In this document: piece after piece, positions 1 to 20,015 of the stretch
Numbering within the stretch: the stretch's first letter is position 1
Layout of the letters: each line of letters begins with the position of its first letter
IMG/VR virus record: IMGVR_UViG_3300048011_000155
Coordinates: 1-20,015 of that record
From: a virus
Reading direction: 5' to 3' (one strand)
DNA: 20,015 nucleotides
Made by a program: the position numbers and the translations under genes
The notes under the pieces: generated by a model
Database searches by the model: none
What the model was told of the DNA's origin: nothing
What the model saw: the letters and a program-made list of their open reading frames with translations, nothing else

Positions 1-1617
1 CACATATGCCGCTACCCAAGACGAACCTGTGTAGACAAACATAGCTTCAGCGACTGTATCGAAATACAGCGCACCAGCTACCAGCGCATTGCCGTCATTG
101 TCCAGCGTAGGTGCAGATGACTTAGCGCCCAGATACCTGTCGTCAAAGTTATCGTAAGCCGCAAGCGTTGCATCCCTAGCTGACTCAGCCGCAGTCTGTG
201 CAGACGATGCAGATGATGCGCTGGATGCCGCAGCGGTGGCTGATGACGCTGCATTGGTGGCGCTTGTAGCCGCATTGGTCTCTGACGTGGCAGCGTTTGT
301 CTCGCTAGTAGCAGCGTTGCTGGCTGATGTCGCAGCTTCCGCAGCTTTAGTCGTGGCTGTTGATGCGCTTGACGATGCAGATGTGGCAGATGCCGCAGCA
401 TTGGTTTCGCTAGTCGCCGCATTTGTTTCAGAAGTTGCAGCATTTGCAGCGCTTGTCGCAGCGTTAGTTTCGCTCGTTGCTGCATTTGACGCGCTTGTTG
501 AAGCGGCTGAAGCACTTGTCGCTGCGTTAGTTTCTGATGAGGACGCATTGGCCGCGCTTGTAGCTGCTGCCGATGCCGATGAAGCGGCATTGGTTTCGCT
601 TGTCGCCGCATTAGTGGCAGATGTAGCCGCTTCTGCCGCTTTTGTTGTAGCTGTAGAGGCTGATGTGGAGGCCGATGAAGCTGATGAAGCAGCTGCTGTT
701 TCTGATGCTGCCGCTGCTGTTTCAGATGCCGCTGCTGCGGTCTCTGAGGCTGCTGCCGCTGTCTCTGATGCAGATGCTGCTGTCGCTGATGCAGCCGCTG
801 CTGACGCGTCCGCTGCTACTCCGGCTTCGCTTGCCGCTGCATTGGTTTCGCTTGTGGCTGCGTTTGTTTCACTGGTGGCTGCGTTTGTTTCGCTTGTAGC
901 AGCCGCCGCAGCGCTTGCTGCTGCCGCTGTTGCTGATGACGTTGCTGTGGCCGCATCTACAATCAGTTCCCATTTAGACGAGTCTGTGTTTGTGCTGATA
1001 GGCAGGGAACCAGACGATGTGTGGGCTACCTGACAGATATAGATGTTGTTGTTAGTCGTGTCCTTAATTAAGTCACGGACAGCAAAAGATGTTCCGCTTG
1101 ACCAGTTTCCACGGAATACGCCCAGTTCCTGGGTGACTGACAGTTCGCCTGTGCCGTCAAAACCAAGAATTTTGTTGGCTCGGTCTGATGAACCAACAGT
1201 AAACTCTGTCGATGTCATAGTGTTTGTGCGTGACAGCTTGATAGAACGGTCCAGTTCTTCTTGCTGCTGTTGCGCAAAGAATGTCAGCTTGTCCAGCGCG
1301 TTCTCATGTTCGGAGGCCGGGAAAGGGTCGTTAGGAGTGTAGTCTGTTGTCTGTGTAAGTTCTGCATCACGGCGTATTACCACAGTAACGCCAGATGCAG
1401 GCGCCGTGACAAAGGTTACGTTGCCGCCACTCGCATCGCCCACACCCGATACAGTGTAGTTCGTTGTGATTGCCTGCACAGTCTCCGTGCCAGTCGCGTC
1501 AGTACGCAAGATAACTGTAAGGTCATCCTCGTCAAACACCTTGAAGGTGTAAGCAAACGCAGTCGTGCTGCCGTTGCCTGAGTAGCTATTCTTGGTATTG
1601 GTGCTGCTTACAGTCAT
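1..1617 (-). CDS. Tail fibre protein (T7 gp17-type N-terminus), 3' end cut by window edge
   Basis: Receptor-binding fibre; 539 codons are open to the window edge, so the receptor-binding tip is missing. Residues 1-130 match the T7 tail-fibre N-terminal domain that anchors the fibre to the tail: F-A-Y-T-F-K-V-F-D-E-D-D-L-T-V (21-35), N-Y-T-V-S-G (53-58), V-T-V-V-I-R-R (77-83), D-P-F-P-A-S-E-H-E-N-A-L-D-K (97-110). Residues 168-219 (G-V-F-R-G-N-W-S-S-G-T-S-F ... D-S-S-K-W-E-L-I) look like a small beta module with two Trp residues, as in carbohydrate-binding modules of fibres. Residues about 220-475 are an Ala/Ser/Thr heptad stalk. Residues 485-539 start with F-D-D-R-Y-L-G-A and hold G-A-L-Y-F-D-T, common near fibre stalk ends. 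Confidence 0.93.
   Translation of the reverse strand, partial: MTVSSTNTKNSYSGNGSTTAFAYTFKVFDEDDLTVILRTDATGTETVQAITTNYTVSGVGDASGGNVTFVTAPASGVTVVIRRDAELTQTTDYTPNDPFPASEHENALDKLTFFAQQQQEELDRSIKLSRTNTMTSTEFTVGSSDRANKILGFDGTGELSVTQELGVFRGNWSSGTSFAVRDLIKDTTNNNIYICQVAHTSSGSLPISTNTDSSKWELIVDAATATSSATAAAASAAAAATSETNAATSETNAATSETNAAASEAGVAADASAAAASATAASASETAAAASETAAAASETAAAASETAAASSASSASTSASTATTKAAEAATSATNAATSETNAASSASAAATSAANASSSETNAATSASAASTSASNAATSETNAATSAANAATSETNAATSETNAAASATSASSSASTATTKAAEAATSASNAATSETNAATSETNAATSATNAASSATAAASSASSASSAQTAAESARDATLAAYDNFDDRYLGAKSSAPTLDNDGNALVAGALYFDTVAEAMFVYTGSSWVAAYV
190..960 (-). repeat. Heptad repeat stalk of the tail fibre
   Basis: About 35 seven-residue units, consensus A-A-T-S-E-T-N with variants such as A-A-A-S-E-T-A and A-S-S-A-S-S-A, encoded by non-identical codons. 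This is the type of repeat described as phage tail fibre repeat. The register holds throughout except for one one-residue slip near the unit S-E-A-G-V-A-A. A longer unit starting S-T-A-T-T-K-A-A-E-A-A-T-S occurs twice, its lysine codons at 640-642 and 346-348, exactly 294 bases (98 residues, 14 heptads) apart. Confidence 0.88.
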
Positions 1618-8246: not shown

Positions 8247-8707
8247 CAGTTCGCTTCCTCATATCCCGCATATGCTTCTGTTGTAGCGCCCAAAATGGAG
8301 CCTATAGCAGCTTGCTTATATCCCGCTGCACGGGCTTGCCCTGACAGAATTATAGACTCTACCTCTGCCTCTTTTGCCGCTTGTTCAATACTGCTTGCAT
8401 ACTGAATGCGTGCCGCTGCGTCTTCAACTCCAAAGTAAACTTCAGCCAGTGCATTCAAAGATGAGCCAGTAACCTGAACACCAGACTTGGCAATCGCAAC
8501 TTGCGCTGCCCCTTTTGTGTATTCGCCGCGGCGTCTAGCGCGAGATTCTTCATCTCGTTTAGCCCTTGCAAGAAGTAATGACTCATTCTCTGCAATTTGT
8601 GCGTCTCTTGCGGCGACCTGCTGCGCATATTTTGCAGCGCTTCTGTTGGCTTTATAACCAACAACGCCCTGTAGTACGGTTGCGCCCGCAGCTATTTCAC
8701 CAGCCAT
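8246..8707 (-). CDS. Internal virion protein, T7 gp14-like
   Basis: A 153-residue Ala-rich protein in the gp14 slot (T7 gp14, internal protein B, is 196). In T7, gp14 is ejected first and forms a pore in the outer membrane. Seen here: a glycine/alanine N-terminal helix (A-G-E-I-A-A-G-A-T-V-L-Q-G-V-V-G-Y, 2-18), a long charged helix with A-R-A-K-R-D-E-E-S-R-A-R-R-R-G-E, the S-G-V-Q-V-T-G-S-S-L-N-A-L motif (about 75-87), which is typical of this class, and another helix ending in a Gly/Ala segment (Q-A-A-I-G-S-I-L-G-A). It shares one base with both neighbours (TAATG before, TGATG after). Confidence 0.82.
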   Translation of the reverse strand: MAGEIAAGATVLQGVVGYKANRSAAKYAQQVAARDAQIAENESLLLARAKRDEESRARRRGEYTKGAAQVAIAKSGVQVTGSSLNALAEVYFGVEDAAARIQYASSIEQAAKEAEVESIILSGQARAAGYKQAAIGSILGATTEAYAGYEEAN

Positions 8708-9129
8708 TAAATTACCCTCGCCATTCTGTAGTAATCCTTGCCATCAGGACCATACTTTTTCATCAAGCCTTCGTTCTCAAAGCCTAGCCAGCGTGCAAAA
8801 CGTATAGCTTGGGCATCCTCCGAATGCACACTTGCTTGCACTCGCTGTAGATTTGCTTCATCCATAATAACATCAAAGAACTCATCAGCATATCTAGCAA
8901 CCGTGACAGGCATCTTATGGGCATTCTTAGATACCATAATCCAGCCCTCACCTACGCCCTGCCACAAAACATGCACCCCACCCATAACAACTATGTCTTT
9001 ATCTTTGCGAGCGGTGAGTCCCACTACATTGTTGTGGCTTTTAAATGAGTCCTTTTCTGTAGAAGAAAAACCGTATCCCAAGTCAATCTCGTCTACATCT
9101 TTTCTGTTGAATACTTCTACGTTAAGCAT
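8707..9129 (-). CDS. gp13-like virion protein with GNAT acetyltransferase fold
   Basis: A 140-residue protein in the position of T7 gp13 (internal protein A). Its second half has the shape of a GNAT N-acetyltransferase: a strand with G-W-I-M-V (62-66), a long helix, Q-R-V-Q-A-S-V-H (95-102), then E-D-A-Q-A-I-R-F-A-R-W-L-G-F (104-117), which matches the GNAT motif where the final helix ends in L-G-F, and Y-G-P-D-G-K-D-Y-Y. In T7-like phages this fold is common at this locus; whether it acetylates anything is unclear, and the acetyl-CoA loop is not obvious here. I chose the ATG at 9129 over an upstream TTG at 9159: it gives the 8-base overlap ATGCTTAA, with GGAGG 13 bases upstream. Confidence 0.8.
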   Translation of the reverse strand: MLNVEVFNRKDVDEIDLGYGFSSTEKDSFKSHNNVVGLTARKDKDIVVMGGVHVLWQGVGEGWIMVSKNAHKMPVTVARYADEFFDVIMDEANLQRVQASVHSEDAQAIRFARWLGFENEGLMKKYGPDGKDYYRMARVI

Positions 9130-11311
9130 CGAATGTGTTGGACCTCCGCATAATCGCAAGGATTGTCATCGGCAGCGGCTGTGTCTGCCGCACTAATACC
9201 CTTGCATCATTGTCATACCCCGATGGGAAAAAGATTTCTTTGTCACCGTCAAACATGGGCACGGCTTCATCCATCGCCATGCTACTGTCGCGGAAAGGTA
9301 TTCTATCCAGATTGTTTGCATCTGGGCCAACCTCTGCGCCTACGCTATCAAGGAAACGCACGGTCACGCCATGGATACGCTTAATTTTGCCCTGTGATAC
9401 ACCGTCATCAGCACCAGCTTCCATACGCAAGGTTTCAACCACCGAATTGTATGAGTAGCCCACATGAACCTTTGTCGAACTCCTGTCCAATGTAATGCTG
9501 CCGCTACTAACGGTCTTGTCTGCATGTGCTGCACCGTCTGCCAATATCTGTACAGTCTCGCCCTCAAGGTGGTCCAGGCCGCTGATAGTGGTTGTAGCTG
9601 AACCGCTGTATGTCAGCCCACTATCTACATAGAACGCATCAGTCACATCGGCGCCAAAGTATATTGGCTTCATGTACACAATATGCCGTGTCTCAACGCT
9701 ATTAATAGTGCGTTTGACTGACAGATACACTTGGTCTTCGGAGCCTGACGGTATTGACGCAATACTTTCAACAACACCTGTGCCGCCCAGCGTATGCTCA
9801 TGCCACGCGATTGTGTTGTTCTGTGGGTCGTAGCTGAGTCCAAGCAATTCGCCATCTGAACGCACAAACCAAAGCACAAGTTCCGGCTCTTGCTGCCATG
9901 TCATATCATCCAAGCCCACGCGGGCTAGGTGTTCGGCCAACACAGTTAAGTCACGCCCGGTCAGGCCATCAACATCCAAGTTAAATGTAATTTCTTTAAC
10001 CTTTGTCTGGCCCTTCTGCACCATGATTGTGCTAGAACCAGCACGCACAGGACGTACATTAGACGCGCCAAACGTAGTTTCGCGCAGTACGTTCACATTC
10101 GTAGGTGTAACAGGCTGTGTGCCAGTGCCGCCTGACAACGTAAACTCTGCGCTGCTTGTCAGGATTTGCAGGAAACGGCCCTGAATCATGTGCTTAATGA
10201 CGTTTACTTGGTCGGACGCAATCGTCACGTTAATTGCTTTGTCATCCTCTGTGCCGGGAGTGTGGTTCTCAAAGTCTGCCGTCACGGACCCAAAGATGGT
10301 CTGTGGCTGGCCTGTGGTGCCTGCGTAGTACAAACGCTCCTCGTAGAACGCAACGGCCCTTGGAAAGCCTTGGTCGCCCCCAAACGCCCCTAACGACCAT
10401 TTCTTTGTGGCATTTGAAGGCCCAATCACATTGTGCGGCAACACGGATATACCGCCGTCATCCTCTTGGACTACAGCAGTAACTACCGTTGCGCTCGTGA
10501 ACACAGTGATTTTGGCATACCCAGTGTCATCGTGGCGGTATTCCCAGTCGATTGCACCGTAGGTCTCTGTGCCGCTAGTGTGAACAGGCGGGGTGTTGCC
10601 AGATGTTTGAGTAGAACCTGTCACCTGCTTATACACATGCCCATTGTATCGCACAAATTCGTTGTTAGAGTAGCTTGTACCAGCAGCCCACTCATCGTAA
10701 GTAACCTCCAGCACTTCGCGGAATCTAATAAGACGCCCAACATCTGCGCTGGTAAACAAATCAGCAGACGCCGTAATCGTCACAGTGCCTGTGTCAGCAG
10801 AGGCGTACAACGTAGTGTCTGTTATGTTCTCATCGAGATATGGCCCATCAGTGAATGTGATGTCGCTAAATGTAAAGCTGGTTGCAGTTGTGCGTGTTAG
10901 CTTTGCTGGCTCATGGTTCTTGTGAGCAAAGAAAATAACATCAGCAGACTGCGTGTAGTTTAATTCAAATATCTCTGTGACTGAATAAGGTGTAGCCACC
11001 TCGACAGCGGAACCGCCAGAAACAAGTAACCCGCCATCTGTGTAAAAACGCATGTAGTTTGCGCCTAGTTCAATGACGTATGCTTGTTCATCGCTGAACT
11101 CAAATGGTATCAATCGCACCTTGCCGTTACTCTTTGACGAGCCAGCATAGTATGTGCCGGGTCTGCGTGTTGCCCCGCCCTGCGGGAACACCAGCATATT
11201 TGTCAGCTGCTGTACGCCATTGGCGTACTTCTGCAAATCAATCCTGCCCTCAAGTCGTGGTGATAACTCGCCAGACTGAAAGTTGGTGACAATAGTGGAT
11301 ACCCGCGCCAT
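9122..11311 (-). CDS. Tail tubular protein B / nozzle (T7 gp12-like)
   Basis: Forms the nozzle of the short tail, through which DNA leaves. At 729 residues it is close to T7 gp12 (794). The family's opening is clear: N-F-Q-S-G-E-L-S-P-R-L-E-G-R-I-D-L, followed by Y-A-N-G-V-Q-Q-L-T-N-M-L-V-F-P-Q-G-G-A, then R-R-P-G-T-Y-Y and L-I-P-F-E-F (about 67-72). The body is beta-rich with many Thr/Ser/Gly residues, including E-E-R-L-Y-Y-A-G-T, W-Q-Q-E-P-E-L-V-L-W-F-V-R-S-D-G-E-L-L-G, and F-P-S-G-Y-D-N-D-A-R near the end, all usual for nozzle proteins. It overlaps the following gene by eight bases. Confidence 0.93.
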   Translation of the reverse strand: MARVSTIVTNFQSGELSPRLEGRIDLQKYANGVQQLTNMLVFPQGGATRRPGTYYAGSSKSNGKVRLIPFEFSDEQAYVIELGANYMRFYTDGGLLVSGGSAVEVATPYSVTEIFELNYTQSADVIFFAHKNHEPAKLTRTTATSFTFSDITFTDGPYLDENITDTTLYASADTGTVTITASADLFTSADVGRLIRFREVLEVTYDEWAAGTSYSNNEFVRYNGHVYKQVTGSTQTSGNTPPVHTSGTETYGAIDWEYRHDDTGYAKITVFTSATVVTAVVQEDDGGISVLPHNVIGPSNATKKWSLGAFGGDQGFPRAVAFYEERLYYAGTTGQPQTIFGSVTADFENHTPGTEDDKAINVTIASDQVNVIKHMIQGRFLQILTSSAEFTLSGGTGTQPVTPTNVNVLRETTFGASNVRPVRAGSSTIMVQKGQTKVKEITFNLDVDGLTGRDLTVLAEHLARVGLDDMTWQQEPELVLWFVRSDGELLGLSYDPQNNTIAWHEHTLGGTGVVESIASIPSGSEDQVYLSVKRTINSVETRHIVYMKPIYFGADVTDAFYVDSGLTYSGSATTTISGLDHLEGETVQILADGAAHADKTVSSGSITLDRSSTKVHVGYSYNSVVETLRMEAGADDGVSQGKIKRIHGVTVRFLDSVGAEVGPDANNLDRIPFRDSSMAMDEAVPMFDGDKEIFFPSGYDNDARVLVRQTQPLPMTILAIMRRSNTFDA

Positions 11312-14261: not shown

Positions 14262-14464
14262 TACTTCTCCTCTGTCATCATGTTGTGTATATGAAGGATA
14301 ACAGCACGTTTTCCTTCTTCAAAAGCCGTGGCATTAGCATCGCCTGCCACATAGCTTGAACCACGCCAGTTGCAGCGTGCCTCAAGGTCTTTTAGCACTT
14401 TGAGTCCCGCATTGGAGTCAAAGGTCTTCTTATACATATCTCGCAGCTGTTCTATTTCTTTCAT
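14261..14464 (-). CDS. Bbp19-like small phage protein
   Basis: A 67-residue protein that looks like the small Bbp19-type family found beside portal and scaffold genes in podoviruses. The visible pattern is L-K-V-L-K-D-L-E-A-R-C (21-31), a short loop, G-D-A-N-A-T-A-F-E-E-G-K-R-A-V (41-55) and the closing helix I-L-H-I-H-N-M-M. The family's role is not known to me; position suggests head assembly. It overlaps the portal stop by four bases (ATGA) and shares one base with the scaffold start (TAATG), so it is translated as part of the same coupled series. Family assignment is from remembered sequence pattern. Confidence 0.7.
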   Translation of the reverse strand: MKEIEQLRDMYKKTFDSNAGLKVLKDLEARCNWRGSSYVAGDANATAFEEGKRAVILHIHNMMTEEK

Positions 14465-16047
14465 TCTTGAACCATCCTAACAGCCTGTGCAGCTTGCGCT
14501 GTAGTGTACACATCTTCCTGTTCTTGCTGCCTCTGCATCATCATGGCCTCTTGTTCAGCGCGTTGCTTGCGTGTCTCTGCTACCTCACGGCTAGAGCGGA
14601 GTGTAGTCTTAGGAACACCAAGCGCATCAGTAACATGCTCAACTAAGCCATCTGGGTCAATATGGTCCCCCACTGGCAGCGACTGTGCAAGCGGAAGCAA
14701 TATCTCAAGCGCACGCATCGTGTTGTTAAGGCTATTAGACTTCTGTGCCTTTGCCAGCGGCGATACATATTCAATATCTATGTCACGGCCTTGCAAAATC
14801 TCTGGTGGCTCTGCCAGCATGCCATCACGCAGCATCAGCGAGAATACACGGTCAATCATAGGGCGCAGCATTTCATTCATTAGCCTGCCAAGAACAGGGC
14901 CGATAACGCGCATACGTTCTTCTTGACGCTGGACAACCTCTGTAGCTGTCATCCCCGGCTGGCCTGAGAACAAAATCTGGTCAACGTAAAATGCTTGACG
15001 AATTGCAGCCCGCCGCTGTTCTTCCATATTTAAGCCAATAGGAATGTTGGCACCAGTCTGCAATGGTGTGATGGTGTCTCGTGAGCCTGCCCGAAAAAAG
15101 TTAAGACCCCCCGGTTGTGTACGAATAGGTAACAAGAAACCGTCATCAGGCACAAGCAGAGGCGGGTCAATCTGCTTTTGTGCAGCCTGAATAATTGTCT
15201 TAGACATCAAATTCAGCATCTTAACATCAGGCAGCGCAGTCATAGCTGGTGAACGACCCATAACCTCACCAGTTGCTTTCAAAAAGCGCGGCACAACGTA
15301 AGGAAGTTCCTCAAAACCACCCTCTGACATAATCATCTTAGTCTGCATGCAAAGATACGCAGACATAAATGGCATGTTCTTGTTGTTACCCTTTGTTACA
15401 TCGCGCTCTGTGCGAGGCATAACCGCATGCAGTATCTCAACTTCCTCATCAGGATTCTTTTCAACCTTTTTCTTAATGAAGTCGCTGACATTCTCAATGC
15501 CAAAGCGCTCTACAGCTTGCTCCGCAGTCATTCTGTACATACGGAATACGGTGTTCACCATGCCAAACTGGTCTTCTTGGGCGTAGAACTCAGAAATGTG
15601 GCGTGTGCTAAACCGTAGGTCACCTTTGTCCATTTCAATAAACATGCAGGATGTACCGAATACAACCAAGTCAACGTAAGTCTCATGCACCTCAGTCTCA
15701 AAATTAGACTGGTTAAATGCACGCATCATGCGCCTGGATGTGTCTTGCAGCCATTCACGCACATCGTCATCACGGTTAATATCAGTGTCCTTGATATCTA
15801 GGTGGAACCAAGGCGCCGCACCACTTGTAAGCATGCCGTGAAGGAAAGCAGCCATCAGGTCGATAGACTGTAGCGCTGTACCATCATAGATAAGTTCCAT
15901 GCGCTTTTCACCGCGGGACCGCTTCTTCACAATATCAGCCTTGCGCGGAAGCATGTAGTCCGCAAGTTCCTGATAGTGTGTGTCCCAGTTATCGCGGCGG
16001 CTTTTAATATAGTCAAACCGCTTTGCTATGCTGACCGCTTTATCCAT
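14461..16047 (-). CDS. Portal protein (T7 gp8-like head-to-tail connector)
   Basis: Forms the dodecameric ring at one capsid vertex through which DNA is packaged and ejected and onto which the tail is built. The 528 residues match the phage head-to-tail connecting protein family in length (T7 gp8 is 536) and landmarks: N-terminal Y-I-K-S-R-R-D-N-W-D-x-H-Y-Q-E-L-A-D-Y, then R-G-E-K-R-M-E-L-I-Y-D-G-T-A (about 44-58), the L-H-G-M-L-T-S-G-A-A-P-W-F stretch (about 69-81), and the central R-Q-A-F-Y-V-D-Q-I. The C-terminus is a Gln/Glu-rich helix with M-M-M-Q-R-Q-Q-E-Q-E. Its TGA overlaps the next ATG as ATGA. Confidence 0.95.
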   Translation of the reverse strand: MDKAVSIAKRFDYIKSRRDNWDTHYQELADYMLPRKADIVKKRSRGEKRMELIYDGTALQSIDLMAAFLHGMLTSGAAPWFHLDIKDTDINRDDDVREWLQDTSRRMMRAFNQSNFETEVHETYVDLVVFGTSCMFIEMDKGDLRFSTRHISEFYAQEDQFGMVNTVFRMYRMTAEQAVERFGIENVSDFIKKKVEKNPDEEVEILHAVMPRTERDVTKGNNKNMPFMSAYLCMQTKMIMSEGGFEELPYVVPRFLKATGEVMGRSPAMTALPDVKMLNLMSKTIIQAAQKQIDPPLLVPDDGFLLPIRTQPGGLNFFRAGSRDTITPLQTGANIPIGLNMEEQRRAAIRQAFYVDQILFSGQPGMTATEVVQRQEERMRVIGPVLGRLMNEMLRPMIDRVFSLMLRDGMLAEPPEILQGRDIDIEYVSPLAKAQKSNSLNNTMRALEILLPLAQSLPVGDHIDPDGLVEHVTDALGVPKTTLRSSREVAETRKQRAEQEAMMMQRQQEQEDVYTTAQAAQAVRMVQE

Positions 16048-16266: not shown

Positions 16267-17076
16267 CTATGGGTAAGTCGCTTCTGGCGGGAACTCTGGC
16301 TCCTGTATTGCTGGCAACAAGCTTGCGCCTTTTTCTGGCTGCGGCAATGTCATGAAAGCCTGATAGTTTTCAAAAGTAGACTCTGCTTGTATCTCGGACA
16401 AACGTATCTTTTCTTTTGAGGTTGTTCCCTGCTTCTTTGCTTGGGCTTCCGCTTCGTCAGGCGTAAGAAAATCACCGCCTCTAGCGTAATTTTGCAGCCC
16501 ATAATATCTTTTGGGGAGCCCCATATTGCCGGGCTCACCTTCTTCTAGGTTTGTGTGTTTATAATTACTGTCGCCAATAGTCATCTGTCCAATGCCTGCA
16601 TTCAACATATCCTTTTTCATCGGGTGCCCTTCGGGGAGGCTTGTGTAAATGGCAAAGTATCTGCGCATTTTAGGATGCGTAACATTGGCATTGTAGCTAA
16701 ACAGCAACACAGCTTCTTGTGTTTGTTTTGGAAGTTTAGTCAAATCGACTGCCGTAAGGTTATCACTTTGAGTGTTAAACTGCCGTGACCTTCTTTCAAA
16801 GACAGCGCCTGCGATTTGCGACTCTATAGCTGGGTTCTGTTTAACAAAGTCCAAATACTCTCGCTGATTTCCAAACTGCGCCAGCTGTGGGTATGCCTCT
16901 GTTAACTCAGGAACATTTGCGCGTGTGGTTTTGAACTCATCAAAAGTAATATGATAAGTGCCTGTGGTGATTACATTATTTTTTTCTGACCTTTCCTTGA
17001 GCCTGTCGCCACCAGCAATTTCTGCCTGTGCGGTTTTATCAAGAAACCAAGAATATTTAGAAGCATAATCAACCAT
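16267..17076 (-). CDS. Unknown protein, possible lysozyme/transglycosylase-like fold
   Basis: This 269-residue protein has no family I can name with certainty. Its N-terminal half has the layout of a lysozyme-like muramidase: a helix with Glu19 (T-A-Q-A-E-I-A-G-G), then G39-T-Y-H-I-T44, comparable to the G-x-x-Q-I-T that follows the catalytic Glu in soluble lytic transglycosylases. A region with N-P-A-I-E-S-Q-I-A-G-A and a later S-Y-N-A-N-V-T-H helix resemble the second lobe. This is a pattern judgement, not a confirmed match. The C-terminal part (about 185-269) looks flexible and ends Pro-rich. It starts 10 bases after the preceding stop with a modest AAGG upstream. T7 carries a transglycosylase domain inside gp16; the gp16-like protein here shows none at its N-terminus, so this could be the cell-wall-opening enzyme (inference). 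Confidence 0.7.
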   Translation of the reverse strand: MVDYASKYSWFLDKTAQAEIAGGDRLKERSEKNNVITTGTYHITFDEFKTTRANVPELTEAYPQLAQFGNQREYLDFVKQNPAIESQIAGAVFERRSRQFNTQSDNLTAVDLTKLPKQTQEAVLLFSYNANVTHPKMRRYFAIYTSLPEGHPMKKDMLNAGIGQMTIGDSNYKHTNLEEGEPGNMGLPKRYYGLQNYARGGDFLTPDEAEAQAKKQGTTSKEKIRLSEIQAESTFENYQAFMTLPQPEKGASLLPAIQEPEFPPEATYP

Positions 17077-17086
17077 AACAACAACC

Positions 17087-17968
17087 TTACTTGTATAGGA
17101 CGCCCCCGCCTTCTAGCAGGGTTTCACCAGCAAAACGCTTAGAACGAGTAGCCCTAGCGCGTTTCTTAGTCGGCGCAAGCAGTGTTCCCGCTGCCTCATC
17201 TTCAATCACTGGCTCATCCGGCTGAGGCTGAGGCTCTGGCTCATCGCGTTCTGGCTCGCCTTTAAACGGGTCAAGGTCGGGACGTCCCGTATAAACCTTA
17301 CTGCCTTTGACAAGCCCCGGCTCAATAATACCAGCAACGCCACCACGCTCATCCTTAACAATCTCTGTGCTGTAAGTAATCTTGCCATCCTTAATGACAG
17401 GCTCATCCTTAGCAATCTTTGTCAGGATATTCATGGCCGACTTTGCGCCGATTGCATTTAATAGGTTCACGCTGCCAACTGACGTGTCTGGCAACTGCCC
17501 AACCCTAGCGCGGTTTGCAAGGTCGCCAAGAACATCACGGTTCAAGTCAGGACGGCCAGCAATATTTGCAGCTGCTGTGTCTCTGTCTACACTTGGCAAA
17601 TCACCAACAGTAGCCAGCACATCTCCAGGGCTTGGACCAAGAGTACGAGCCAACTCACCGCTTGGTGCGGTCTTTTTAATGTCGGCCTTCATTTCTAAAC
17701 CGCCACCGGGCTTGGACGTAGGCGTGTAACTAACACCAACCTCGCGCATCTTTTCAGATGCTGGCCCGCCTGTATCACCTAGCTTTGCGCCAGTCTTTGG
17801 CGCAGGCTTTGGTGCAGGCCTGTCTTCACCACCAGTAGGCCTTGAGACACTAGGCTTTGGCTTAGGCGCAGGTTTTGGCTTAGGAGTTGGAGGTGCTGTC
17901 CTGCCACGCTCTACACCACGATTTCTATCGCTGCCGCCACCGCCGCCGCCGCCTCCACCTGAACCCAT
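17087..17968 (-). CDS. Gly/Pro/Lys-rich low-complexity protein, unknown function
   Basis: I do not recognise this 293-residue protein. It starts with a run of nine glycines after M-G-S, then a disordered Pro-Lys segment (about residues 25-60, built of P-K-P and P-A-P units). A more ordered middle (about 70-220) contains D-R-D-T-A-A-N-I-A-G-R-P-D-L-N and is followed by an acidic Pro-rich stretch (E-P-E-P-Q-P-Q-P, about 238-250). The basic tail is R-A-R-A-T-R-S-K-R-F-A-G-E-T-L-L. No signal peptide or membrane segment is seen. The start is well supported: a strong AAAGGAG lies at 17982-17976, seven bases upstream, inside the end of the acyltransferase gene. Its place between terminase and portal fits a virion or assembly accessory protein, but this is inference. 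Confidence 0.75.
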   Translation of the reverse strand: MGSGGGGGGGGGSDRNRGVERGRTAPPTPKPKPAPKPKPSVSRPTGGEDRPAPKPAPKTGAKLGDTGGPASEKMREVGVSYTPTSKPGGGLEMKADIKKTAPSGELARTLGPSPGDVLATVGDLPSVDRDTAAANIAGRPDLNRDVLGDLANRARVGQLPDTSVGSVNLLNAIGAKSAMNILTKIAKDEPVIKDGKITYSTEIVKDERGGVAGIIEPGLVKGSKVYTGRPDLDPFKGEPERDEPEPQPQPDEPVIEDEAAGTLLAPTKKRARATRSKRFAGETLLEGGGVLYK

Positions 17969-17969
17969 C

Positions 17970-18386
17970 TTAGTTCTCCTTTAACTTATGAAAACCGACC
18001 TTGCCAGTCTCCGTTCTTAACCAATAGCAGTCACTATAACCCATTTGAATAAAAATGTCTTTTAAAGACCTAAAGCCCTCAGTTATGCCCTTGCGACCAC
18101 CAAAACAGATAAAATCAATAACCCAAGGACTATCGCCATCACCACGCCATGCGCTAGGCGGGAACTTGCCCGTTGCCATGTATCGTTCAATGTCATCGTA
18201 GTCGGGGAATGCCCATGTAGCAAATAAGTAAGGAGTCGCTTCAGCATCTAAACCAAATATGTAATTACCCATTGCCAACGGCGGTTCTAAATACAATCTT
18301 TTGTCAGCCCTTGTATAGTCAGCATGATAAGGGCTGTATTCCATCATCATAGACGCAGTGTCGTAGTGAAAGCTGCTTATTTCCAT
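17970..18386 (-). CDS. HlyC-like toxin-activating lysine acyltransferase
   Basis: Resembles the HlyC/ApxC family (RTX toxin acyltransferase), which transfers a fatty acyl chain from acyl-carrier protein to internal lysines of RTX protoxins. Matches to E. coli HlyC, recalled from memory: S18-P19-Y20-H21 matches HlyC S-P-L-H23; T-P-Y-L-F-A-T-W-A (51-59) matches Y-P-V-A-Y-C-S-W-A; W88-V-I-D91 matches W-F-I-D92; the C-terminal G-K-V-G-F-H matches G-K-V-S-E-F-H. His23 and Asp92 are HlyC's essential residues, so both catalytic positions are kept. At 138 residues it is shorter than HlyC (about 170), lacking part of the C-terminus. It sits directly after terL and its stop is one base before the next ATG (TAAGATG). 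No strong Shine-Dalgarno precedes its ATG. No RTX protoxin or transporter is visible, so the substrate is unknown; a virion or host protein is possible (inference). Confidence 0.78.
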   Translation of the reverse strand: MEISSFHYDTASMMMEYSPYHADYTRADKRLYLEPPLAMGNYIFGLDAEATPYLFATWAFPDYDDIERYMATGKFPPSAWRGDGDSPWVIDFICFGGRKGITEGFRSLKDIFIQMGYSDCYWLRTETGKVGFHKLKEN

Positions 18387-18401: not shown

Positions 18402-19688
18402 TCAATGTTGAAAAGGGTTGTAACTGTTGTCCGCAACCTGTTGAGGAGGTTTGACCATCCTTGTTCTGTTTTCAAGCCCGACCGCGAGGTATCGGAACGC
18501 ATCTGCTGCATGGCTTGTAAAGTCGTGTCTTGGCGCGTCTCTGAAGCTGCGTTTTTTGTCATCCCATTCCTGCCTGTACTGCCGCAGCATATCTAACCCC
18601 TCCGCTGTCTTGTCGCGGTCAAAGTAGCATTTAGGCAGTAACATTCGTGCGGCATTGATGCCATCAGCAACCTTCATCTTAGGAACTACTTTGAATCTGA
18701 TTCCGAGCGAGTAAGCCGTTTCAAGCCTGCTTTTACCCGAACCCAACTCACGGACCTCAATGTCGTGAGGAGCGAGGTGGTCGCCATAATTATAATCTTT
18801 CTTTGTGAGTATATCTGCATAATGGTCGAGACCAACGCCAGAACTCTCGTAATAATCAATAACATTTACCGCACCGCCTCTGAATATCTGCGCAAACCAA
18901 ATGGCCGTAGAGTCATTAATGCCCAAGTCCCAAGCCGTGTGAACCGGATACATAGGGTCGTAAGGCACCCTAGTAATGCGGTCATCTTCCTCAGCTTCCC
19001 CTAGCAACTTGCCGTAGTAGGCGCCGATAATAGCCGCCGTAAATGAACACTCGTATTCCTGTTCGTACTGCTCAGGTGTCATCTGCGCTTTAGCAGCATC
19101 TAATTCATCAGGCCTAACAATACCTGTTTCACTAGCCTTACAAACTTTAAAATACCAGTCTTGAGAGCCTTCGGCAATCTGTCCACGCGCCGTGTCTAGC
19201 AAATCAAAAAAATGGTTATGCCCCGCAGGCGTGCCTAAAAAACAAGCCGACCCCTGCCTGTCAGATAGCGCAGGCCGTACAACCTCCCCCCATACCCTTG
19301 GGTTTTGCATGCCAAATTCATCGAAAACACACTCATCCAAGTAAATACCACGCAAAGCATCCGGGTTTTCGGCAGACAACAACATTAACCGCCCCCCGTT
19401 AGGGAAATCTGCACGCAGTTCAGTCTCGTTAAACGTGACGCCAGGAATCACAGATGCGTAAAACTTCACATAATCCCAAGCAATACGCTTGGCCTGTGCA
19501 AACGTAGGCGCAACAAACGCAGTGCGCGGCCTTGGCAAAGGACAAGTCAGTGTCGTCTTTATTAGCTGATTAACCGCAAACACAGTCTTGCCAAAGCGCC
19601 TGTGCATCACTAAGACATTCCAGCGCTTCAGGCTGTTGTGCATTTCAGCTTGGAGCGCACGAGGCTTATACGGAATCTTAACGTCCAT
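18402..19688 (-). CDS. terL: Terminase large subunit (packaging ATPase/nuclease)
   Basis: Motor and nuclease that cuts concatemeric DNA and pumps it into the prohead through the portal. Numbering from the ATG at 19688: Walker A-like M-H-R-R-F-G-K-T ends at Thr35; Walker B hydrophobics lead to Asp123-Glu124 (C-V-F-D-E); a coupling motif L-G-T-P lies near 151-154. The C-terminal RNase H-like nuclease has Asp254 (A-W-D-L-G) and Asp259, Asp309 (P-H-D-I) and a terminal H-D-F-x-x-H-A-A-D-A-F-R-Y block around 388-399. Length of 428 residues is a little short for the family but all motifs are present. An in-frame GTG at 19700 would add four residues; I prefer the ATG because it gives the TAATG stop/start overlap seen at other junctions here. 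Confidence 0.95.
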   Translation of the reverse strand: MDVKIPYKPRALQAEMHNSLKRWNVLVMHRRFGKTVFAVNQLIKTTLTCPLPRPRTAFVAPTFAQAKRIAWDYVKFYASVIPGVTFNETELRADFPNGGRLMLLSAENPDALRGIYLDECVFDEFGMQNPRVWGEVVRPALSDRQGSACFLGTPAGHNHFFDLLDTARGQIAEGSQDWYFKVCKASETGIVRPDELDAAKAQMTPEQYEQEYECSFTAAIIGAYYGKLLGEAEEDDRITRVPYDPMYPVHTAWDLGINDSTAIWFAQIFRGGAVNVIDYYESSGVGLDHYADILTKKDYNYGDHLAPHDIEVRELGSGKSRLETAYSLGIRFKVVPKMKVADGINAARMLLPKCYFDRDKTAEGLDMLRQYRQEWDDKKRSFRDAPRHDFTSHAADAFRYLAVGLENRTRMVKPPQQVADNSYNPFQH

Positions 19689-20015
19689 TAGCTTTCCCAC
19701 ATAATGCGTATGCCACCGTCAGTCACCTCAACGCCAGCCTTGTTCTTTTGTTCGCCAAAGCGCTCAGGGATAATCTTCTGCACCTTCCAGCGCACATGAT
19801 TGGCATAATCACGCAGTACATGCGGGTCATAGTCTTTCCGCTTGTTAAGGGCATCGTCATACAGCTTATCAAGCTCCTCTAGCGCCTTCTCTGCACTATA
19901 CTGCTGTGCAGTGCGTACTGCAGCATCAAGTTCCTCGCTGCGCTTCATACGCTTGTACAGAGCCTGCCTAGTAACGCCAGCACGATTACAAGCATCTACC
20001 ATCGTAAAGCCATCG
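19688..20015 (-). CDS. terS: Terminase small subunit, 5' end cut by window edge
   Basis: Probable small terminase, the DNA-recognition subunit that loads the phage genome onto the large terminase. The visible 108 residues begin with a helix-turn-helix-like stretch (G-F-T-M-V-D-A-C-N-R-A-G-V-T-R-Q-A-L-Y-K), the usual N-terminal DNA-binding element of small terminases. A charged helical segment follows (residues about 25-75 of the visible part). There is an ATG at 20002, but the frame stays open to the window edge and the upstream residues (D-G-F-T) complete the first helix, so the true start is probably outside the window. The stop overlaps the next gene's start by one base (TAATG at 19688), and that gene is a clear large terminase. 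The assignment rests mainly on this position plus the HTH pattern. Confidence 0.75.
   Translation of the reverse strand, partial: DGFTMVDACNRAGVTRQALYKRMKRSEELDAAVRTAQQYSAEKALEELDKLYDDALNKRKDYDPHVLRDYANHVRWKVQKIIPERFGEQKNKAGVEVTDGGIRIMWES

What the first reader, a model, noticed from the sequence alone, without database searches (positions are those of the whole stretch)
17970..18386. HlyC-like lysine acyltransferase in the packaging operon of a podovirus
The protein aligns over nearly its full length with RTX-toxin-activating acyltransferases and keeps both catalytic residues in context: His21 in S-P-x-H (HlyC His23) and Asp91 in W-x-I-D (HlyC Asp92), plus the P-x-x-x-x-x-W-A strand and a G-K-V terminal strand. 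In bacteria such enzymes sit beside an RTX protoxin and its type I exporter. Here it sits between the large terminase and virion genes, with no RTX repeats in any visible protein. A phage could use it to acylate a virion protein (for membrane entry), to modify a host RTX protein or surface protein, or to acylate another lysine target. The shortened C-terminus hints at a changed substrate range.
Basis: partly seen in the sequence, partly recalled or inferred. Interest (0 to 1): 0.85.

Follow-up and report, generated by a model that had tools for sequence, protein, structure and literature searches.

The report
Phage enzyme related to toxin-activating acyltransferases
A marine phage carries, between its DNA-packaging gene and its tail-channel genes, an intact relative of the bacterial enzymes that attach fatty acids to toxins; the same kind of gene recurs in unrelated phages next to tail-tip genes, so these phages may attach lipids to a virion protein to help them cross the host envelope, although no substrate has been shown.

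Summary
The ORF (17970-18386, MINUS strand, 138 aa) is real and belongs to the toxin-activating acyltransferase (HlyC) family. Pfam PF02794 is matched above its curated cut-off, all 40 aligned relatives match it, S18/H21/D91 are invariant in them, the gene is under purifying selection, and the AlphaFold2 model's best PDB match is ApxC (E 2e-7). It lies in a podovirus packaging/tail-channel operon. No RTX protein or acyl carrier protein was found in relatives. HlyC-family genes are already annotated in six cultured pelagiphages, so the occurrence is not new. New here: (i) a four-subtype subfamily in uncultured HTVC010P-like podoviruses, an optional gene always directly upstream (65/65 slots) of a Gly-rich, gp7.3-like protein; (ii) in two unrelated phage lineages the HlyC gene again sits directly upstream of a tail-module protein (lambda-J-like hub or Lys-rich protein). 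This resembles hlyC-hlyA and cdiC-cdiA. Best reading: acyl-ACP-dependent acylation of the adjacent tail/ejection protein, to help it enter the outer membrane. Enzyme family is well supported; substrate is inferred. Against: some partners have no lysine, related phages lack the enzyme but keep the partner, two phages carry it in an early operon, and pelagiphage forms lack the catalytic His.

The parts
17970..18386 (-). HlyC-family (toxin-activating lysine-acyltransferase-like) gene, 138 aa, called Acyl here
   Evidence: PF02794 above cut-off; 40/40 relatives match; fold matches ApxC 4whn; purifying selection
18333..18335 (-). codon for Ser18 of the S-P-Y-H motif
   Evidence: invariant in 40 relatives
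18324..18326 (-). codon for His21, predicted catalytic histidine
   Evidence: invariant in 40 relatives; aligned to the SPLH histidine of ApxC
18114..18116 (-). codon for Asp91, predicted catalytic aspartate in W-V-I-D
   Evidence: invariant in 40 relatives; aligned to WFIDW of ApxC
17976..17980 (-). AGGAG ribosome-binding-like sequence inside the 3' end of Acyl, serving the next gene; the two coding regions are 1 base apart
   Evidence: sequence; gap of 1 base in most relatives
17087..17968 (-). Partner candidate 'GlyPro', 293 aa: N-terminus MGSGGG, C-terminal basic motif, mosaic middle; gp7.3-like by position and composition only
   Evidence: directly downstream in 65 of 65 Acyl+ slots; no significant profile match to T7 gp7.3
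16267..17076 (-). ORF of 269 aa at an exchangeable position; one relative carries a phage tail lysozyme (PF18013) here
   Evidence: lysozyme in relative L126
16051..16257 (-). ORF of 68 aa, Pro-rich with RRKGRGSTIVAG motif, directly before the portal
   Evidence: conserved in nearly all slots
18402..19700 (-). terminase large subunit, directly upstream of Acyl
   Evidence: PHROG 2472/2; nearest isolates pelagiphages of the HTVC010P group, about 49-54% identical
19688..20002 (-). terminase small subunit
   Evidence: PHROG 1482
14461..16047 (-). portal (head-tail adaptor)
   Evidence: PHROG 332, E 2e-155

Best explanation
The gene encodes a phage toxin-activating-type acyltransferase. Shown by sequence and model: family, fold, conserved His/Asp pair, late-operon position, fixed place before a tail-channel/ejection-type gene. 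Inferred: late in infection it takes a fatty acyl chain from host acyl-ACP and transfers it to an amine of the protein made from the next gene (GlyPro, a tail-channel/ejection-type protein). The lipid would help that protein bind or enter the outer membrane when the virion opens, as CdiC does for CdiA and HlyC for HlyA. My separate estimates: real HlyC-family acyltransferase 0.9; substrate a virion protein 0.5; substrate the adjacent protein 0.35-0.4.
For: Family and fold. Constraint: dN/dS 0.05-0.18. Context: TerL-Acyl-GlyPro-(exchangeable ORF)-ORF68-portal across the loci covering it; a separate GlyPro-type gene follows in 65/65 Acyl+ slots, while the Acyl- slots include 11 distinct rows with GlyPro missing or fused to ORF68. 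Convergent context: in HTVC026P, 111P and 112P the HlyC gene lies between a minor tail protein (L position) and a J-like tail hub, touching or overlapping the hub gene; in HTVC115P and eight related environmental contigs it directly precedes a Lys-rich protein starting MGAIS/MGSI/MGSF. Precedent: CdiC acylates CdiA and aids binding to the target outer membrane (PMC8510554). No phage ACP in 18 relatives, so a host donor is likely.
Against: No substrate, acyl donor or activity is shown. GlyPro occurs without Acyl in 15 distinct rows of the tree set. GlyPro of L069 has no lysine and those of L036/L076 have one, so lysine acylation of GlyPro cannot be universal. Only three independent gain/loss contrasts exist, too few for significance. 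HTVC103P/104P carry the gene in an early region. Pelagiphage forms do not have His at the H21 column.
Confidence: 0.4

Rival explanations
1. The enzyme acylates another virion protein (tail hub, gp14/gp15/gp16-like internal proteins or fibre), and its place before GlyPro only reflects late co-expression.
For: GlyPro exists without Acyl and can lack lysine; in HTVC026P/111P/112P the neighbour is a different protein, the tail hub.
Against: No other widespread gene family was found only in Acyl+ genomes; the neighbour rule holds in the structural modules of three lineages.
Confidence: 0.22
2. The enzyme modifies a host protein (surface protein, receptor, or a regulator), for example for superinfection exclusion or takeover.
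For: Optional, moron-like presence; early-region position in HTVC103P/104P near a LexA-like repressor and an ssDNA-binding protein.
Against: In the window group it is tightly packed in the late packaging/tail operon (1 base to GlyPro, 15 bases to TerL) and was seen only there in the related loci.
Confidence: 0.2
3. It is a GNAT-like fold repurposed as an assembly factor or acetyltransferase, not a fatty-acyl transferase, at a position like that of T7 gene 7 before gene 7.3.
For: T7 order is 6.7-7-7.3-(7.7)-8; the Acyl model resembles viral-library entries named host specificity protein A / host range protein (prob 0.95-0.99, E 0.03-0.04); a GNAT gene holds the same pre-hub slot in phage DSL-LC06; His is absent in pelagiphage forms.
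Against: ApxC is a far better match than any GNAT (E 2e-7 versus 1e-2); profile comparison with T7 gp7 is not significant; the T7 gp7 model was too poor to use (pLDDT 44); S18, H21 and D91 are invariant in the window group.
Confidence: 0.16

Closest known systems
HlyC/ApxC/CyaC toxin-activating acyltransferases (PF02794; ApxC structure 4whn)
   Same: Fold, S-P-x-H and W-x-I-D motifs, gene directly upstream of the presumed substrate
   Different: No RTX protoxin or type I exporter found; phage virion operon; 138 aa against about 170 in 4whn; substrate unknown
CdiC of class IV contact-dependent inhibition loci (PMC8510554)
   Same: HlyC-family enzyme with a non-RTX partner encoded next to it; the lipid is proposed to anchor the partner in the target outer membrane; some loci lack the enzyme
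   Different: CdiA is a giant secreted effector; here the partner would be a virion protein
Annotated toxin-activating lysine-acyltransferases of pelagiphages HTVC026P, 103P, 104P, 111P, 112P, 115P
   Same: PF02794 members in phage genomes, four of the six in tail/structural modules
   Different: Only about 18-23% identical to the window protein in the alignment; His21 replaced; different partner proteins; no functional discussion found in the library searched
T7 gp7 - gp7.3 gene pair
   Same: Small protein encoded directly before a Met-Gly, basic tail-channel protein, upstream of the portal
   Different: No significant sequence relation shown; fold of T7 gp7 not established here

Membership tests
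Toxin-activating acyltransferase family (PF02794, HlyC) | Profile match above the curated cut-off | tested here: met
   28.7 bits against 25; 40/40 relatives match at E <= 0.1
Toxin-activating acyltransferase family (PF02794, HlyC) | Catalytic His and Asp in S-P-x-H and W-x-x-D context | tested here: met
   H21 and D91 invariant in 40 relatives, aligned to those of ApxC
Toxin-activating acyltransferase family (PF02794, HlyC) | ApxC-type modified GNAT fold | tested here: met
   Model pLDDT 86.6; 4whn E 2.2e-7, prob 1.0, TM 0.74 by query
Toxin-activating acyltransferase family (PF02794, HlyC) | Acyl-ACP-dependent fatty acyl transfer to a lysine | not testable with these tools
   needs biochemistry
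RTX toxin operon (hlyCABD type) | Adjacent RTX protoxin with GGxGxDxUx repeats | tested here: not met
   PF00353 absent from 18 related contigs; no window ORF with two GGxGxD motifs
RTX toxin operon (hlyCABD type) | Type I secretion genes | tested here: not met
   genes around Acyl are packaging, portal, capsid and tail genes; the virus record is a 20 kb fragment
Class IV CDI cdiC | Neighbouring cdiB and cdiA genes | not tested
   no specific search was made; annotated neighbours are phage virion genes
T7 gp7.3 family (for GlyPro) | Sequence or profile match | tested here: not met
   hhalign not significant; no PHROG hit for the window protein

The most novel reading that the evidence does not exclude
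HlyC-fold enzymes form a recurrent virion-lipidation module of marine phages: each acylates the N-terminal glycine (alpha-amine), not a lysine, of the tail-channel or tail-hub protein encoded next to it, a phage counterpart of N-myristoylation. Support: partners start Met-Gly in 42 of 43 distinct Acyl+ sequences and in both other tail-module lineages, against 4.2% of long ORFs; MGSGGG is kept despite synonymous codon changes; a partner without any lysine (L069) and a hub whose first lysine is near residue 41 (HTVC112P) still start MG. Against: one partner starts Met-Ala (L089), and Met-Gly starts also occur in enzyme-less phages (HTVC010P, HTVC202P, P19250A).
Probability: 0.1. Interest if true: 0.9.

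Novelty: new variant of a known kind. Interest (0 to 1): 0.6.

Why it matters
I found no published study of a phage enzyme that lipidates its own virion proteins; the literature library searched was limited. How short-tailed phages get proteins through the outer membrane is an open question, and a dedicated acyltransferase in the tail-channel operon suggests a direct test. It also extends the CdiC precedent, that HlyC enzymes act outside RTX toxins, to phages that include cultured pelagiphages on which it can be tested.

Tried and rejected
Acyl carrier protein in related phages: none. RTX repeats: none. Close relatives in named phages, by tblastn of window-type subtypes: none; they only appeared when starting from a Sinorhizobium homologue. 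Relatives in species genomes by peptide pattern: none. A widespread gene found only in Acyl+ phages: none beyond Acyl itself. Lysine acylation of GlyPro as a universal rule: rejected by lysine-free GlyPro. Acyl as a recognisable homologue of T7 gp7, and GlyPro of gp7.3, by profile: not significant; the T7 gp7 structure was too poor to use. Phylogenetic test of Acyl against GlyPro: only 3 independent contrasts, no power. Literature on phage HlyC: none found.

Full report
CHECK OF THE OBSERVATION. The ORF is exactly at 17970-18386 but on the minus strand; it encodes 138 aa. The only Pfam match is PF02794 HlyC, 28.7 bits against a curated cut-off of 25; PHROG 20210 (unknown function) also matches; NCBIfam does not. 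The first scan of IMG/VR gave 43 loci, the second 163 relatives, of which 80 were kept. Forty non-redundant members at 34-99% identity fall into four subtypes; S18, H21, W88 and D91 are invariant and all 40 match PF02794. A profile of them finds one solved structure by sequence, ApxC (4whn, E 3.4e-6), with H21 on the SPLH histidine and D91 on the WFIDW aspartate. An AlphaFold2 model (pLDDT 86.6, pTM 0.80) matches ApxC first (E 2.2e-7, TM 0.74 by query); the next matches are ordinary GNAT enzymes at E about 0.01. Pairwise dN/dS of 0.05-0.18 shows a constrained gene.

CONTEXT IN THE WINDOW. The gene order on the minus strand is TerS, TerL, Acyl, a 293-aa Gly/Pro-rich protein (GlyPro), a 269-aa ORF, a 68-aa Pro-rich ORF, portal, a scaffold-like gene, capsid, tail tube genes, a gp13-like GNAT, a gp14-like protein and further large internal proteins. 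TerL is 49-54% identical to TerL of the HTVC010P group of pelagiphages, but GC is 49%, so the host is unknown. Acyl and GlyPro are 1 base apart, with AGGAG inside the end of Acyl, which suggests translational coupling (inference).

OPTIONAL GENE, FIXED PLACE. In 96 distinct TerL-portal slots, 65 have Acyl and 31 do not, and 18 Acyl-less contigs lack it anywhere in the record. Acyl+ slots always have a separate GlyPro-type gene downstream. The distinct Acyl-less rows include 15 with GlyPro and 11 where it is missing or fused to the 68-aa ORF. On the TerL tree the label needs at least three changes, so only three independent contrasts exist; Acyl and GlyPro go the same way in two to three of them and never the opposite way, which is not significant.

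THE PARTNER. GlyPro has a conserved start (MGSGGG or MGGG), a hypervariable middle and a basic C-terminal motif. In subtypes II and III it is short and Lys-rich, resembling T7 gp7.3, a protein at the adaptor/nozzle junction that is ejected at the start of infection (PMC11784390). Profile comparison does not support homology, so this is a resemblance only. GlyPro of L069 has no lysine: lysine acylation of GlyPro cannot be the rule in every phage. The Met-Gly start is kept in 42/43 distinct Acyl+ partners with synonymous codon variation, but Met-Gly also occurs in enzyme-less relatives, including HTVC010P.

OTHER PHAGES. Starting from a Sinorhizobium homologue one finds HTVC115P, and from it six cultured pelagiphages with annotated members; the four scanned score 49-62 bits on PF02794. 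In HTVC026P, 111P and 112P the gene lies between a minor tail protein (L position) and a J-like tail hub, touching or overlapping the hub gene. In HTVC115P and environmental relatives it directly precedes a Lys-rich protein starting MGAIS/MGSI/MGSF. HTVC103P and 104P are exceptions, with the gene in an early region. In related phages the pre-hub slot holds nothing (HTVC202P), DUF6950 (roseophages) or a GNAT (DSL-LC06). The pelagiphage forms have Lys or Gln rather than His at the H21 position (by eye for the loosely aligned N-terminus); CdiC and ApxC His mutants keep some activity (PMC8510554), so these could still be active, but this is inference.

MECHANISM. HlyC enzymes move a fatty acyl group from acyl-ACP to lysines of the protein encoded next to them, and CdiC shows that the partner need not be an RTX toxin: it modifies the receptor-binding domain of CdiA and is proposed to anchor it in lipid A (PMC8510554). 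By analogy of gene order and of the partner's likely role at the envelope, the most likely reading is acylation of the adjacent tail/ejection protein. The enzyme family is shown; substrate, donor, site and benefit are inferred.

NOVELTY. A HlyC-family gene in a phage is not new as an annotation: six pelagiphage records and a viral entry named HlyC (A0A6J7WXX7). The searched library held no study of its function. The window subfamily, its optional fixed position and the repeated neighbour rule across unrelated phage lineages are the new content.

Noticed in passing
window 8707-9159 (-): A second GNAT-fold gene, matching PHROG 308 (T7 gp13, internal virion protein), lies between tail tube B and the gp14-like gene, as in T7.
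   Followed up: partly
window 16267-17076 and relatives (L001, L003, L012, L022, L126, L129): The gene after GlyPro is exchangeable between near-identical phages; one relative has a phage tail lysozyme domain (PF18013).
   Followed up: partly
L003:3134-4105, and slots of L127, L129, L155 and others: The ORF after GlyPro often stays open upstream in another frame across the GlyPro C-terminus, giving a hydrophobic, signal-peptide-like N-terminal extension; meaning unknown.
   Followed up: no
L225 (T7 18500-20300): T7 gene 7 ('host range and adsorption') directly precedes gene 7.3; viral structures named host specificity protein A resemble the HlyC-like model, so T7 gp7 may be GNAT-like.
   Followed up: partly
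L258, L259-L265, between tail genes L and J: The same slot before the tail hub holds HlyC, a GNAT, DUF6950 or nothing in different phages, which suggests an exchangeable hub-modifying or hub-assembly gene.
   Followed up: partly
window and L121-L125 (TerL versus Acyl): TerL of the window groups with phages carrying subtype IV Acyl, while its own Acyl is subtype I: the acyltransferase has probably been exchanged between lineages.
   Followed up: partly
window 1-1617 (-): The fibre-like gene contains long Ala/Ser/Thr-rich repeats (AATSETNAATSETNAA).
   Followed up: no
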